A DNA stretch of 64,000 bases, from NCBI RefSeq assembly GCF_964355755.1, contig NC_092670.1:12895201-12959200 (forward strand). The letters are read 5' to 3'. The number at the start of each line of letters is the position of its first letter. The stretch's first letter is position 1. Of the stretch, positions 19,457-59,100 are shown in pieces. The translations under genes were made by a program, and so were the position numbers. This DNA is from Antedon mediterranea. Its lineage: Eukaryota > Echinodermata > Crinoidea > Comatulida > Antedonidae. A model generated the notes under the pieces. The model did not search any database. It saw nothing but the letters and a program-made list of their open reading frames with translations, and was not told where the DNA came from.

Positions 19457-27193
<7,737 letters not shown>

Positions 27194-28269
27194 TGTTGTT
27201 TTATTGTTTGCAGTGTTTAAATGCAGGAAACAGTGTACTTAATGTGCTCAACAAATACTAACAAAACACCAACACCGCACATGAAAACGAAACAAGAGAG
27301 ATCGATCGAAAAAGTCATATGATTTGCAGTCACGTGACGATGCCGATTGAGTACAGAGTAGTCTTTAGTTTCCAGGCACCATTTAATCCTTGGCTCTTGA
27401 TGATTATTCATCCTTCCGAGTGGTTAGAAGTTTATTGACATTAATCATCATTACGTAATCGTGATAAACATTGAAAGCATTTAGGCCTATTTATCTTTTT
27501 TGAGATGTGCTCTCAAATAGTCACTTGGCACTATGGCCTATGTCGTGTCGGAGGAGAAAACCAGATCTATAGGCCTAGTTGTAAAAGATCTTTCAAGAGA
27601 AATTTGTGTAATTTTCGTTTTCTTTTCAGTTCACTGTAATTATTTGAATTTGGAATTCAATTTTCAAAAATAAAATGATCAATCAATCATACAGTATATT
27701 TAGGAAAGAAAAGAAGGAATTGTATCATGTATGTGAGAAAACTATATACAGTATTATAATCGCAGAAGAGACGGTCACTCGCAGATGACGTAGCCACAGA
27801 TTGTTGGCTCCCATGATTCCGCGTTATTGATTTTAGATTTCAAATACAATTAAACATGGTAAATATAATAATCCCTTTATTGTTTAAATAACTATTTACA
27901 TTGATTTTATGTTTTCATATTATTGTCCGACTGCTGCCACCCAGTTCAATAGTAAACGTAGGCCTAAGTCTACAAACAAAATCATTCTTCAGCAGAATAT
28001 TGGTTTCAAATTGTTCTTATGTTAAAGGTAGGATAAAATTAGTCTAATTTGTCCTTTTATTTTACAGCTCGCACTATATATAATAAGCATATTTGTTAAT
28101 TTGCATTTTTGTAAAAACAAACTCTATATATGATTTAAATTGTTTGTGTGCGAAACCGCAATTCTATGCTACAATTGAAATGTGACTTTGATCGTTTAAA
28201 ATATAAATTTCTTAGTATAGTTGTGTTGACATATTTGAAAAATGTACAGATATAGGCTTTTACAACAAT
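27194..28269. other. Intergenic region upstream of the cathepsin array
   Basis: Contains the presumed promoter of cathepsin D copy C immediately upstream of 27193. Otherwise it is AT-rich with several AGGCCTA words. I see no exon. The first exon or exons of the GTPase-Hint gene could lie here or just beyond but could not be identified. Confidence 0.4.
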
Positions 28270-29231
28270 GTTTTTGATAATGATAGTTTAACTCTTGTTC
28301 CTTTCTCAGTTAGCAATGTCGAGCGATGTTTGTCAGAATCATATAAATCAGAGTGGTCAAATAATATAATGCAAAAAACCTCATTAAATTTATACTCAAA
28401 ATTGAAACCTTTCCCTAATTTAGAAAAATATTTACTTGATAAAACACATTTTTATGAGACAAGTCTGAAATTTAAATTAAGATCTAACACTCTACCTTTA
28501 GATTGTAAAACTTATAAATGGTCCAATGATGTGTCCGGTCTTTGTACTTTATGTGGGAATGGCGAAATCGAAGACATTAAACATTTTTTATTAAACTGTA
28601 AAGCATTTGATAATATTAGAATGAAAGAATTATCCAATCTACAAATTAATCTTGTACTCTGTAATGATTATGACACATGGAATCGTTACACAACAGCAAC
28701 TGCTGATGATAAATTACAGTATATTTTAGGTGGAGATTCTATCGCGATTTGTAAAGAATCTGAGACCTTTTTTGATTTGTTTTGTAAACAATACACAAGA
28801 GCTGCATGGGAGAAACGGTCAGAACTTAAATCTCCCAATATATAGATTGTTTTTCTTTTGTATTGTTGCTTTTATATATTTGTATTTAGATTTGTAAATA
28901 GTATACACCTGTGATAACAACTATAGGTCTTCAGTACCTGATGTTGAAACACAATGGTTTGTAATGTGAACTCTTTACTATATTTTATGTTTATTTTTAT
29001 ATACCTCTTTATCAACTCAAACCTATGATACCGTAGGACAATTTAATACAGTACCTATATTACCATGTTGGTAATGATTTTTCTTTTATATTTTTGCAAA
29101 CAGTTTAAGAACCTGTATCCGTCATATAATGTATTGTTTTGATGTATTATGTTAAATTGGATGCACCACTTCTGTGTGTGCCACCGATGCAAAGGTGTCA
29201 TTTCCTAATAAATTAATTAATTAATTAAAGC
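28270..29231 (+). mobile_element. 5'-truncated non-LTR retrotransposon (LINE) with RT zinc-binding domain
   Basis: An open frame ending at 28845 encodes about 170 residues. It includes KFKLRSNTLPLDCKTYKW followed by CTLCGNGEIEDIKHFLLNC, the C-x2-C-x8-H-x4-C zinc-binding module (zf-RVT type) found at the C-terminus of many LINE reverse transcriptases. A 3' UTR of about 370 bp follows and ends in a short tandem TTAA/AATTAATTAATT tail at about 29208-29229. The polymerase and endonuclease parts are missing, so this is a dead 5'-truncated insertion. Confidence 0.85.
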
Positions 29232-29885: not shown

Positions 29886-32123
29886 TTTACAAATGCCCAA
29901 ATCCTCACTGCAGAGCGAACCACGATAAAGACTACAAATACTGCCCAGAATGTGGTACACAAAGAATAGGTGAGTATGTTATCCTTTAGACACCACCAAA
30001 GTTGTAACATCATCTAAGATTCGACTGGAATTGGTCTAATTTATTAGACATCAGTCTTCTGTAATACAATTAATATCTAACACGTTGTCACAAGTTTAAT
30101 TTTGCGAGCCAGTTTTGCTTTTTTCAATTTCATAGTATACCACACGATGATACTTATTTTATTAAAGGTACGTACGTACTACCGTGATAATATTCACATT
30201 ACATTTATTTCAGACGAAAACCCGGAATTACCTCATCTTCCTGCTGGTCCGCCTTTAAATATCGTTGTGATTGGAAAAACTGGGCAAGGAAAAAGCTCAA
30301 CGGGGAATTCAATCCTATTCCAAGACGCTTTCAAGGATTCATGTTCATCATCGTCAGTTACAAAAGCTTGCCAATGGCAGAGTGTAACAATCGATAACCG
30401 TGAGTTGCTAGTAGTTGACACCCCTGGTTATTTAGACACAAGTTTCGACAATCCGTTAAATGTAAAAGAAAGCCTGAAGTTTACTAGCGACGAGGTTGCA
30501 CGAGGGTTGACAGTTCTAAATGACAACATCCATGCGGTTCTACTGGTCATGAAGTTCGGCGAGCGATGTATTGCGTACGACAGAGCTGTCATATTGGCGG
30601 CGGAAGAACTGTTCGGAGGAGCTCTTATGGACTATGGGATAGTCTGCTTTTCACATAAAGATGAGATGGAAAGACAGGAACAAAGAAATAAAATAAACAA
30701 AGAGGAACATTTGAAACAGCTGAAAACGCAGACAATATTTCGAGACATCTTGGGAAAATGTGGAAATCGAGTGGTGTATTTCAATAATCTAGCAGCCAAT
30801 GAGGTTGAACAAAAAGCTCAACTGGTTACCTTGATCAAGTTGATTGACAGAACACTAACCAAGAAGGACTTTGTTCCATTTTCAACTGGAAAGCTTGAAG
30901 AGGCAAGAGAAAGAGTGAAACAACGAAAAGAAAAAGAAATGCAAGAAGCAGAAGAAAGAAAACTCAAAGTTGAAGAAAAAAGAAAGGAAGTTGACGAAAT
31001 TATGGAAAAGCAAAAGATAGCCGACGAAGAAAAGACAACAGAAGCAAAGTCAAAACGTAAGATGAGTTTATTAAGAGCTGTGAAAGAAAGAAATGATAGA
31101 ATTAAAGAAGAAGGAAAAACCAGAAAGTTCACACTTAGAAGAAAGTCGAAGTCTAAACCTAAACTCCATGAACTTCCAGAGGACGATAAACAGTTAGTTG
31201 AAGATAACAAGGTCGATGTGGTAGAGAATGGTGAAGCCATCATTGAAGAAAACGGCGGCGTGAGATCATCAGAGCTGACTGAAGGCGAAGAATCACATGA
31301 AAACAATGAAACAGAATTGAAGGAAGTAGAAGAAAACTCGGATAATAATTCAGAAAAAGCTGTATTGATGGAAATGTCGAGTCTCATACAAGAAAGAATG
31401 ATCAGTGTTGAGGAGAAATTTACCAAGTGGTCAGATAAAGAAAAGACTGAGGGAAAAGAGACTGATGGCAAAGAGAAACCAAAAGACCAGATGTTCACGA
31501 TAGATGGAGACCTTGAGGATATGGGATGTTTTGCATTTGACAGTAAGGTTATCCTTCGAAGAGGAGAGTGCATTAAAGTGCAGGATTTATGCGTTGGCGA
31601 CAGAGTACTCTCTGTTAAATCTGATGGAACAATAGCTTTTGAAGAGGTTTTTATCATAACTCATGTTGTCACCAAAGAAGTGGAAGCCATCAAGGTCAGC
31701 ACGGATAAGGGAAGATCAATTACTTTGACGTCAAATCACATGATGCTCATAAACGGAGGCCTTGGCTTTGAATCGATGATTCCCGCTAGAAACATCAAAC
31801 CTGGCCATTTTGTGCTTGTTCTCAACTCGATTCAAGAACTGCAAATTGAGTTGGTTACTGGTGTGGAACCGGTTCTAGTTGCTGGATGTGTTTGTCCAAC
31901 TACAACAGGCGGTAGGATTATCGTAGATTCTGTTGTCGTTTCATGTTACCCAGATAATTTCCCGCCATTTCTTCAACACTATGGTCTTTACGCACCAATG
32001 AGGATGTTCTATTGGCTAATGCCGAATTATAATGCGGGAAAACAAAATGGAATGCCAAAATGGATTTGGTGGCTGAAGAAACTTGTTCATCCAACATGGA
32101 AAAGGATTCAAGATGCTCTTTAA
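29886..32123 (+). CDS. Zinc ribbon - GIMAP/AIG1 GTPase - Hedgehog-type Hint fusion (5' incomplete)
   Basis: Two exons are supported: 29886-29969 and 30214-32123; an earlier start exon is missing. Exon one encodes a zinc ribbon (YKCPNPHC ... YCPECG). The junction is in phase (AGA ATA G / AC GAA). Exon two opens with an AIG1/GIMAP GTPase: P-loop GKTGQGKSST (from 30273), G3 DTPG (30417) and G4-like SHKDEM. The AIG1 box NIHAVLLVMKFGE lies between G3 and G4. A K/E-rich coiled coil and an acidic linker follow (about 30880-31500). The C-terminus is a Hint domain: GCFAFDS with candidate catalytic Cys at 31527, VQDLCVGDRVLSV, TSNHMM (His at 31737) and VDSVVVSCYP, then an aromatic tail to the stop. That order matches Hedgehog autoprocessing domains. 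Known for the families: AIG1 proteins are membrane-associated, often immune GTPases, and Hint domains self-cleave. Inferred: cleavage before Cys frees the GTPase. Confidence 0.9.
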
Positions 32124-56100: not shown

Positions 56101-59100
56101 CTTGTTGGCTTTAGAAACACCTATCAATAGAGGGCGACATTAAAAAAATATACTGTAGAAATTTGTTTGGCGTGCGAGGTCAATATAGTAGCTGCATCAA
56201 ATTTGTTTTCGGTATTTAGATATTGTTATTTTGTTTTCGGTTTGTTTTCGGTTGTTTTTGGTTGTTTATGGTTGTTTTCAGTTGTTTATGGTTGTTTTCG
56301 GTTGTTTTCGGTAATTAGACTGACCGATTTTAACTTGTTAAATCTACCACTAAAGCATGTTAATAACATTTACTTAACATTAATACCGGGCCACTACCTG
56401 GTGAAGATTAGTATGACCGCTTACTATTAATATATTATTATTAATTAGGCAGACAGATTGTTTATTATGTACTGAACTTTTTTTTTACTGCTTAGATGTG
56501 TTGATATGCCGACACTGTGGTCATGATATTGTAAAAGCATCTGATTTGGAATACTTTCCAGCTACAAAAGTTGTACAAAGTCGTGAATCCACCATTCTAG
56601 GCATTCCGGACATCCTTGTACAGTTACTTCGTAATCCTCAGGGTAGGTGATTGGTGTAATAAAGTGCAATGTTGGCCCAGCCATCTACACCCCATCAATT
56701 TACATCCCACACATCTACACCCCACCCACCTACACCCCGCCAATTTACACACTGCCCATCTACACCCCACCCATCTACACCCCACCCATCTACACCCCAC
56801 CCATCTACACCCCACCCATCAACACCCCACCCATCTACACCCTGCCCATCTACACTTCACCCATCTACACCCCACCCATCTACACCCTGCCCATCTACAC
56901 CCCGCCCGTCTACTCCCCACCCGTCTACACCCCACCCGTCTACACCCCACCCGTCTACACCCCACCCGTCTACACCCCACCCGTCTACACCCCACCCGTC
57001 TACACCCCACCCAACTAAATTTTGATATGGAAATGTTCACTTCATTTTACAATTTTTAGGTGTCAAATATTAGGTCTCTAGTTTGAACAAAAAATTCATA
57101 TTTTTTGTCTTTTTTAAATAAATTTAAAAGTTTTATATTTGTTTTTTAGGCTCTACATTTGATGTCATAACAGCCACAGATGCTCAAGTTCTGGTAGATT
57201 CAAAGGTAGGTGTGAATATTTTTATTACAACTACAATTTTGTGGAAAATTTGTTTTTAAAGTGAATTATAAATATGGGACCATGTAGGAATTATTCTACT
57301 GCAGTTTACTTTTTCAACAACTATTGGCATCACACACTGTTTATTGCAGTGACTGGCACCTCATAAACTTCTAATTTGAAAGCTCTGTCTACACTATCAA
57401 ACTTAATGTGATGATGTCATATCACTACCATATTTTGGCACATCACACTTTTTTTGTCAAACTAGTTTGATAGTACTCTATAGCTTAATACTATAGAATG
57501 GCCAGGACTCTGTAAGCATTTAGTTAGTCTTGTTTTTTTCTAATTAAGCCATTTATAAGCTCTGTCTACACTATCAAACTTTATGTAATGATGTCATATC
57601 ACTACCATATTTGAGCATATCACTACCATATTTGAGCATATCACTACCATATTTTGGCACAACACACTTTTTTTGTCAAACTAGTTTGATAGTACTACAA
57701 TATAGCTGAATACTATAGAATGGCCAGGACTCTGTAAGCATTTAGTTAGTCTTGTTTTTTTCTAATAAGGCAATTTATAAGCTCTGTCTACACTATCAAA
57801 CTTTAGGTGACAAAATGACATCACACTTTTTGTCAAACTAGTTTAGTGTAGACAGAGCTTCTGTTAATGATATATATATATATATATAACGCCTCGGTTG
57901 GGGCGACTTTTTCTCATTCTCACAGATTTCCTCATCTTTATCGTTTCAAATTAATTAATTAAAATTTCAGTATATCACCGGGCGGTTTAGAATTAATGTT
58001 CTGTGCCTGATTTGTTTATATATATAACTATCTTTATATTTCAGGTTTATCAATCAGATTCCTGGTTTGAAGACACAGCATGGCAGATCACACGCTGCCC
58101 ACGGTGTCATTCACAAATGGGATGGTAAGTATTCAGTGATCTCCCAAAGCAGGTTTTGCTAGCAAGGTTTGCCTGAATAAATTGGCTCCAACCAGTATTA
58201 AAATAAACACTTATCTATTAATGGTAGGTTAGGCCAAGACAAGACATAAAAAAGATAGACAAAGAGCAATCAAAGACTGTATTTTGTCAATTGGATTATT
58301 TTACTCTTTTTGTATTTGAGTATATTAGTTACATCTTATAATATATAGATAATTTGATACTAGAAGGAGGGGAGACTGTAATGTTAAATTTTTCTTATTA
58401 TTTAGGTACATTTTTATTTTGTTATGTTTTCAATTTTCATTTTGTCTAAATGAAAAGCTACAGTATGTATTCTAAATGCAAACAAAACAAATTTGTTAAA
58501 CAAAAGGTCTGAACTGATTTCAAAATGTCGTCATAACAAGAAAATTTACATACCACCTGACTAAAGCCTTATAACAACTCGAGATACGGTATTGTTCAGT
58601 CTATCTGAAGATCGTTTAACGTGAAACACCGTGTAATAGACGCCCGTGTTCTATCTAATTCATAAATATATATTCGCTCTTGATTTCAATTGAGCACTTT
58701 TGCTGCCTCAATGCATCTACATATATATGTATGTATATATTTATCTCTTCAACATCTTTAATATATTTTTGAATAAATTGAAATTAAAATTAATTGAATT
58801 GAAATTAAAAATGATTGATTTACAATTTATTCAACACTCTTTCAATAACATTTCTGAGTTATTCATTCAATTGTTTAATTAATTATTTTTAGGAAATACC
58901 AGCCAAGTGATTCTTATGACGAAGAAGAAGTTTTCCATGGATTAATTTTAAATCACCTTGTGCATGAAGATTGTAAGTAATATATTATTATTATTATATT
59001 TGTGTTGCAAATAACCAGAGATAAAAAATAAACCAGCAACTAACTATCCACATTGATTGGCCCCTTAAGTTACTTGCAATGCATGAGAAACAGTTTCAGT

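What the first reader, a model, noticed from the sequence alone, without database searches (positions are those of the whole stretch)
29886..32123. GIMAP/AIG1 GTPase fused to a Hedgehog-type Hint autoprocessing domain
A single open exon carries a P-loop (GKTGQGKSST), DTPG and the AIG1 box, then a charged coiled coil, then a Hint domain with GCF at its start, TSNH in the right order and VVVSCYP near its end. I know AIG1 GTPases and Hint domains separately; I do not know this fusion as a described protein class. Both halves are on one uninterrupted frame, so it is not a gene-prediction join. It could be a self-processing GTPase.
Basis: partly seen in the sequence, partly recalled or inferred. 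Interest (0 to 1): 0.92.

Follow-up and report, generated by a model that had tools for sequence, protein, structure and literature searches.

The report
Immune-type GTPase fused to hedgehog autoprocessor
A marine animal gene really does join an immunity-type GTPase to the self-cutting, sterol-attaching tail domain of hedgehog proteins; such fusions are already in print, but this one carries an unusual histidine at the catalytic-base position and suggests a GTPase that pins itself to membranes with a sterol.

Summary
One open frame (30081-32123; coding exon from 30214) encodes an AIG1/GIMAP GTPase (Pfam 1.3e-43), a charged linker and a Hedgehog-type Hint domain (8.8e-27) continuing into a sterol-recognition-like tail. 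A separate zinc-ribbon exon (29886-29969) precedes it in matching phase, so the quoted interval holds two exons.

The claim that the fusion is undescribed is wrong: AIG1-Hint proteins are in print for a Glomus fungus, a coral, a snail and amphioxus. New here: (i) the genome looks echinoderm, perhaps crinoid, whereas a 2013 survey found no AIG1 locus in a sea urchin; (ii) Gly-1, Cys1, TxxH and the late Cys are kept, but catalytic-base Asp46 is His, while the animal's own Hedgehog has Asp. Engineered in fly Hedgehog, that swap keeps activity and widens sterol range.

Most likely mechanism (inferred): self-cleavage at Gly438-Cys439 leaving a sterol on the GTPase's C-terminus as membrane anchor. 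Main rival: cleavage without sterol. No transcript, first exon, orthologue or usable structure model was obtained.

The parts
29886..29969 (+). Zinc-ribbon exon (28 codons, phase 1-1), predicted upstream coding exon of the same gene
   Evidence: CX4C...CX2C; Pfam Zn_Ribbon_1 1.5e-4, 21.9 bits, BELOW its curated cut-off of 25. Donor among the best 0.11% of 3590 GTs in the window; acceptor weak, 10.8% of 3264 AGs score as well (splice matrix of my own, recalled consensus). Phase matches 30214. The search found no second copy in the genome.
30214..32123 (+). Main coding exon: AIG1 GTPase, charged linker, Hog (Hint + sterol-recognition-like region), stop TAA 32121-32123
   Evidence: ORF; acceptor AG 30212-30213 (3.5% of 3264 AGs score as well)
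30255..30929 (+). AIG1/GIMAP GTPase domain (P0001 residues 15-239)
   Evidence: Pfam AIG1 1.3e-43; human GIMAP7 2.3e-27, then GIMAP5, GIMAP4, GIMAP2, GIMAP1 by phmmer
30930..31526 (+). Highly charged linker (residues 240-438), ending in Gly438 (Gly-1)
   Evidence: K/R/E/D 50% over residues 239-437; coiled coil not tested with a dedicated program
31524..31529 (+). Predicted scissile bond Gly438-Cys439 (Gly-1/Cys1)
   Evidence: GCF aligned with fly Hh GCF; NCBIfam intein_Nterm 1.2e-7, over its cut-off, begins at residue 439
31527..31949 (+). Hint fold up to SCY (residues 439-579)
   Evidence: Pfam Hint 8.8e-27; 1AT0 and 6TYY matched over this stretch; vs own Hh Hint z 14.3, 0 of 10000 shuffles
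31662..31664 (+). His46 (CAT), in place of the catalytic-base Asp46/Asp303 of Hedgehog
   Evidence: aligned with His in 6TYY (fly D303H, 48.5 bits) and Asp in 1AT0 (wild type, 44.8 bits); aligned with Asp in own Hh; codon
31728..31739 (+). TxxH motif (TSNH; Thr68, His71 in Hint numbering)
31944..31946 (+). Cys140, counterpart of fly Cys143/C400 (SCY, motif J)
   Evidence: the own Hedgehog has Ser here
31950..32120 (+). Sterol-recognition-region-like tail (57 aa); helix-1/motif K 31968-32018, helix-2/motif L 32058-32084 (IWW in place of HWY)
   Evidence: vs own Hh tail: whole 37, helix 1 10, helix 2 91 of 10000 shuffles reach the score; phmmer to fly Hh extends into helix 1

Best explanation
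One gene encodes a (zinc ribbon)-AIG1 GTPase precursor with a C-terminal Hog autoprocessing domain. Proposed mechanism: Cys439 attacks the Gly438-Cys439 bond (N-S acyl shift, helped by Thr68/His71); the tail helices bring the precursor to a sterol-bearing membrane; His46 acts as the general base that activates the sterol hydroxyl; the sterol displaces the thioester. Product: AIG1 GTPase plus linker with a sterol ester on its C-terminal glycine, and a freed Hog fragment. The sterol would do what the C-terminal hydrophobic segments of vertebrate GIMAP1, 3 and 5 do: hold a GTPase on a membrane. Shown: the domains, the residues and their alignment, the lack of a strongly hydrophobic segment. Inferred: expression, cleavage, sterol attachment, cytosolic location, immune role.
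For: AIG1 and Hint far over cut-offs. Gly-1, Cys1, TxxH and late Cys kept although the Hog is only 29% identical to the Hog of the animal's own Hedgehog. His46 aligns with the engineered D303H of 6TYY, a swap reported to keep structure and cholesterol activity and to widen sterol tolerance (section 11 of PMC9163320). Tail resembles the own Hedgehog tail beyond chance (37 of 10000 shuffles) and keeps His, Pro and Arg of helix 1; H374, F377 and R381 are the sensitive residues there in human SHH (section 7 of PMC7242414; position match partly recalled). No intein-type C-end. Highest 19-residue mean hydropathy 1.58, inside the Hint part, so no obvious transmembrane anchor. SHH SRR alone moves EGFP to puncta that overlap Golgi markers (section 9 of PMC7242414). 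Vertebrate GIMAP1, 2, 3, 5 are membrane-associated (passages of PMC8201404).
Against: Helix 2 keeps only W of the HWY motif (IWW), and Ala at each HWY residue cut SHH processing strongly. The Pfam Hint match stops at model position 190 of 213, against 210 for the own Hedgehog. Asp46 is not kept. Hedgehog is processed in the secretory pathway (recalled); here no signal peptide was seen, but exon 1 was not found. AlphaFold with two rows was uninformative (mean pLDDT 41.0; the true Hedgehog control also failed, 37.2). The tail test rests on one comparison sequence. No transcript data, no orthologues, so no test of selection.
Confidence: 0.5

Rival explanations
1. Hint cuts but does not lipidate: a thioester forms at Cys439 and is resolved by water or cytosolic thiols, so the domain is a self-cleaving release switch for the GTPase (or for the membrane-binding tail).
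For: Thioester-forming residues kept. Helix 2 is weakened (IWW for HWY). Hh lacking the SRR is cut without cholesterol. D46A speeds DTT thiolysis 2-6 fold in frog and zebrafish SHH domains (passages of PMC13060885), so losing the Asp can favour it.
Against: Tail still resembles the SRR, helix 1 best (10 of 10000 shuffles); His is reported to work as the base.
Confidence: 0.27
2. Hog attaches another hydroxyl or amine compound, not a sterol (an adduct recognition region as proposed for nematode Hog proteins).
For: His46 plus altered helix 2; nematode tails differ from the SRR and were named ARR for that reason (passage of PMC2362128).
Against: Tail is nearer Hedgehog than chance.
Confidence: 0.1
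3. Catalytically silent Hog, kept as a binding module, or a gene on the way out.
For: No transcript evidence; exon 1 not found; catalytic Asp changed.
Against: 636 codons open; Gly-1, Cys1, T, H and Cys kept at 29% identity; GC content by codon position is coding-like in the AIG1, linker and Hint parts and not in a flank.
Confidence: 0.1
4. Assembly or gene-prediction join of two genes.
For: None found; the searches show one locus that carries it.
Against: One frame without a stop, no intron needed between the domains; same order in print in four other lineages.
Confidence: 0.02
5. Protein splicing like an intein (the wording used in the coral paper).
For: NCBIfam intein_Nterm over cut-off, 1.2e-7.
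Against: No HN followed by C/S/T in the Hog part; Pfam Intein_splicing 16.8 bits against a cut-off of 35.8; the protein ends in the tail, with no C-extein domain.
Confidence: 0.01

Closest known systems
Coral AIG1 + C-terminal Hint proteins (Acropora millepora; Weiss 2013, PMC3723955, passages seen)
   Same: Same two domains, same order; four sequences reported
   Different: Paper infers splicing; no residue-level comparison could be made here; zinc ribbon not mentioned in the passages seen
Biomphalaria glabrata AIG with C-terminal hint/hedgehog domain (PMC7053062, passages seen)
   Same: Same architecture in an animal
   Different: Word 'zinc' occurs 0 times in that main text; sequence not available here
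Amphioxus CARD-AIG1-HINT (PMC12373286, passages seen)
   Same: AIG1 followed by C-terminal HINT
   Different: N-terminal CARD; here a zinc ribbon, and no CARD in a Pfam scan of the three + strand frames of 22.0-30.0 kb
Fungal GmGIN1 (Glomus mosseae; section 9 of PMC2362128)
   Same: AIG1-like GTPase plus Hog with motifs J, K and L-like region, no signal peptide
   Different: Fungus; residue 46 not seen by me
Drosophila Hedgehog Hint, wild type 1AT0 and D303H 6TYY
   Same: Hint match from Cys1 to SCY; His46 as in 6TYY
   Different: D303H is an engineered mutant of a secreted morphogen
Vertebrate GIMAPs (GIMAP7, 5, 4, 2)
   Same: AIG1 domain, E 2.3e-27 to 3.8e-19
   Different: No Hint; GIMAP1, 3 and 5 use a C-terminal hydrophobic segment

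Membership tests
AIG1/GIMAP GTPases | AIG1 domain over curated cut-off | tested here: met
   149.3 bits vs 27
AIG1/GIMAP GTPases | P-loop, DTPG, AIG1 box, lysine-containing G4 motif (labels recalled) | tested here: met
   GKTGQGKSST, DTPG, AVLLVMKFG, SHKDEM; aligned with GIMAP7, 5 and 4
AIG1/GIMAP GTPases | Coiled coil after the GTPase (GIMAP subset) | tested here: inconclusive
   linker 50% charged; no coiled-coil program run
AIG1/GIMAP GTPases | GTP binding and hydrolysis | not testable with these tools
   needs protein
Hedgehog-type Hog autoprocessing domain | Hint domain over curated cut-off, Gly-1/Cys1, TxxH | tested here: met
   94.5 bits vs 29.7
Hedgehog-type Hog autoprocessing domain | Catalytic-base Asp46 (D303) | tested here: not met
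   His46, codon CAT at 31662; D303H reported active in fly
Hedgehog-type Hog autoprocessing domain | Late cysteine of motif J (SCY) | tested here: met
   Cys140
Hedgehog-type Hog autoprocessing domain | SRR helix 1 / motif K | tested here: met
   10 of 10000 shuffles reach score vs own Hh; H, P, R kept
Hedgehog-type Hog autoprocessing domain | SRR helix 2 / motif L with HWY | tested here: inconclusive
   IWW; 91 of 10000 shuffles
Hedgehog-type Hog autoprocessing domain | Self-cleavage and sterol attachment | not testable with these tools
   needs protein
Hedgehog ligand | N-terminal Hedge signalling domain | tested here: not met
   no HH_signal match among the families listed for P0001; the own Hedgehog has it, 7.8e-43
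Hedgehog ligand | Signal peptide | tested here: inconclusive
   exon 1 not found
Intein (protein splicing) | C-terminal HN followed by C/S/T (rule recalled) | tested here: not met
   no such motif in the Hog part
Vint domain | PF14623 over cut-off | tested here: not met
   13.8 bits vs 27
AIG1-Hint fusion proteins (published) | AIG1 followed by C-terminal Hint in one protein | tested here: met
   against

The most novel reading that the evidence does not exclude
A natural general-base-swapped (His46) Hog domain makes a sterol-lipidated, intracellular immune GTPase: a second, non-secreted class of covalently sterol-modified proteins, with a sterol range wider than cholesterol, in an echinoderm although a sea urchin was reported to lack AIG1 genes.
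Probability: 0.3. Interest if true: 0.78.

Novelty: new variant of a known kind. Interest (0 to 1): 0.45.

Why it matters
The abstract of PMC7242414 calls Hedgehog proteins singular across life in their covalent ligation to cholesterol (listing). A Hog domain on a GTPase without a seen signal peptide makes it testable whether sterol attachment is also used to anchor intracellular defence GTPases. His46 gives a natural test of the engineered D303H result. The scattered occurrence of AIG1-Hint (fungus, coral, snail, amphioxus and now an echinoderm-like genome) also bears on whether the pairing is old or arose repeatedly; the amphioxus paper calls its commonest architectures (N-terminal CARD, C-terminal HINT) unique to amphioxus among animals, which the coral and snail reports and this locus qualify for the Hint part.

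Tried and rejected
Phylum guesses: mollusc haemocyanin and GFP gave no match, but their controls did not ring either, so neither counts as evidence; COX1 found nothing. A first thought of a sea anemone or mollusc was dropped after the Hox search.

Exon 1: one phase-1 ATG exon candidate with a donor score over 6 in 15 kb upstream, 26081-26108; it lies in a 40-nt inverted repeat and is more likely part of a mobile element, so it was dropped. The splice scores come from a consensus matrix of my own, from recall. A Pfam scan of the three + frames of 22.0-30.0 kb gave four families at E up to 1 (three zinc-ribbon models and Dzip-like_N, E 0.23), none over its cut-off.

Homologues for a deeper alignment: viral-contig scan 0 confirmed of 2 stretches; genome-contig scan 0 confirmed of 60. 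AlphaFold of the Hog (pLDDT 41.0) and of the own Hedgehog Hog as control (37.2) both failed; I ran no fold search on them. An earlier version of the tail test (5000 shuffles) gave 170 for the local and 19 for the global score; its Hint numbering was off by two and is replaced. Rfam found nothing in the window. Papers not held: the cnidarian GIMAP survey PMC8857920 and the D46H paper (DOI recalled), so D303H is cited from a review. Whether published AIG1-Hint proteins also have His46 could not be checked.

Full report
Observation. The + strand frame 30081-32123 is open for 680 codons; the longest stop-free run in 30 simulated windows was 194. Read from 30213 it gives 636 residues (P0001; its first codon, 30213-30215, is the one split by the intron). 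Pfam places AIG1 at residues 15-239 (1.3e-43) and Hint at 435-610 (8.8e-27), both far over their cut-offs. phmmer against the PDB gives human GIMAP7 (2.3e-27), GIMAP5, GIMAP4, GIMAP2 and GIMAP1 for the first part, and Drosophila Hedgehog (2.5e-13) for the second.

Gene anatomy. The quoted start, 29886, is the first base of another predicted exon, 29886-29969, which encodes a CX4C/CX2C zinc ribbon. Its donor is strong, its acceptor weak, its Pfam score below the curated cut-off. Both of its ends and the start of the main exon are phase 1, so the parts would join in frame (read). The search found no second copy of this peptide in the genome. No convincing first exon was found; the one candidate lies in an inverted repeat. 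So the start codon, and any signal peptide, are unknown.

Source organism. The window's genome has 354 Mb in 18 contigs. Contig 11 is 22.3 Mb and contig 12 only 0.57 Mb, so there seem to be 11 large contigs (lengths of 8 of contigs 1-11 were seen, 22-41 Mb). An Antp-type query gives 37 matches, 12 of them in 7.83-8.21 Mb of contig 2, 11 of these 12 on the + strand; one reads as an ambulacrarian-type Hox9/10 (label recalled). The best of 46 matches to a Distal-less-type query is on the same contig; the hemichordate genome paper states that Hox and distalless are on different chromosomes in hemichordates but on one in sea star, sea urchin and amphioxus (passages of PMC11175523). Together this suggests an echinoderm; 11 chromosomes suggests a crinoid (recalled). 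This is an inference, not an identification. A 2013 survey found no AIG1 locus in Strongylocentrotus.

Copy number. Two Hint loci were found: this one and a Hedgehog on contig 2, whose upstream exon carries the Hedgehog signalling domain (HH_signal 7.8e-43). Of 17 AIG1 candidates scored, seven matched, all over the cut-off: this one, one strong on contig 9 (no Hint in its frame, no strongly hydrophobic end segment) and five weak ones in a cluster on contig 3, of which the one scanned is a stonustoxin-like/thioredoxin/fn3/GTPase protein. Such counts are lower bounds.

Active site. Against the own Hedgehog Hog, identity is 29%. Gly-1, Cys1, Thr and His of TxxH are kept; the late cysteine is kept here while the own Hedgehog has Ser. 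The catalytic-base Asp46 is His (CAT, 31662-31664), but Asp in the own Hedgehog. The alignment is direct: the PDB entry of the fly D303H mutant, 6TYY, scores 48.5 bits against 44.8 for wild-type 1AT0, with His on His. A review reports that D303H keeps the structure and a similar catalytic efficiency, and gains over 200-fold on coprostanol and over 300-fold on epicoprostanol (PMC9163320, section 11; original paper not held).

Sterol-recognition tail. After SCY, 57 residues follow. In 10000 shuffles, 37 reach the score of the tail against the own Hedgehog tail; for helix 1 it is 10, for helix 2, 91; for the Hint part 0. An earlier run gave 170 (local) and 19 (global) of 5000 for the tail. The phmmer match to fly Hedgehog runs into helix 1 (APMR). 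Helix 2 has IWW for HWY. In human SHH, H374, F377 and R381 and each residue of HWY matter for processing (PMC7242414, section 7); here the first set reads H, Y, R (position match partly recalled). So helix 1 is well kept and helix 2 partly. Two-row AlphaFold models are uninformative, as the Hedgehog control shows.

Mechanism. Splicing is very unlikely on sequence. The best reading is Hedgehog-like: thioester at Gly438-Cys439, sterol attack with His46 as base, product a GTPase with a C-terminal sterol. The protein has no obvious membrane helix; vertebrate GIMAP1, 2, 3 and 5 are membrane-associated, GIMAP1, 3 and 5 through a C-terminal hydrophobic segment (PMC8201404, passages), so a sterol anchor would fill the same role. 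Plain cleavage by water or thiols is the main rival, because D46A speeds thiolysis in frog and zebrafish SHH domains and helix 2 is altered. None of these steps was tested.

Literature. Ten searches led to the fusion in a fungus, coral, snail and amphioxus. I saw passages or named sections, not whole papers. None of the passages seen proposes sterol anchoring of GIMAPs; the coral paper infers splicing; [quoted passage not shown] These searches cover open-licence PMC only, so absence in print is not shown.

Verdict. A real AIG1-Hog gene, found once in its genome: a further member of a published architecture with a natural base swap and a likely zinc ribbon. Whether other members share His46 is unknown; if they do, this is only a new member, not a variant.

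Noticed in passing
L001 (G000 contig 2, 3267255-3267878, - strand): The genome's own Hedgehog has SSY instead of SCY at the late-cysteine site, while the AIG1-Hint keeps SCY.
   Followed up: partly
G000 contig 3, 26.54-26.71 Mb (L007-L011): Cluster of five large ORFs (1022-1332 aa) with a weak AIG1 match; the one scanned (L007) has stonustoxin-helical, SNTX-thioredoxin, fn3 and septin/AIG1-type GTPase domains.
   Followed up: partly
window 28216-28842 (+): Remnant of a reverse-transcriptase ORF (zf-RVT 7.2e-4, below cut-off) about 1 kb upstream of the zinc-ribbon exon.
   Followed up: partly
window 26071-26110 and 26334-26373: 40-nt inverted repeat, 83% complementary, 223 nt apart; looks like a small mobile element.
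   Followed up: no
window 56601-57059 and 19694-20513 (+): Minisatellite-like repeats in open frames (HPTHLHPT... and [11 protein letters not shown]...) seen in the ORF lists.
   Followed up: no
L012 3018-3989 (G000 contig 9): The other strong AIG1 gene reads VDSP where this one has VDTPG (G3) and has no Hint in its frame.
   Followed up: partly
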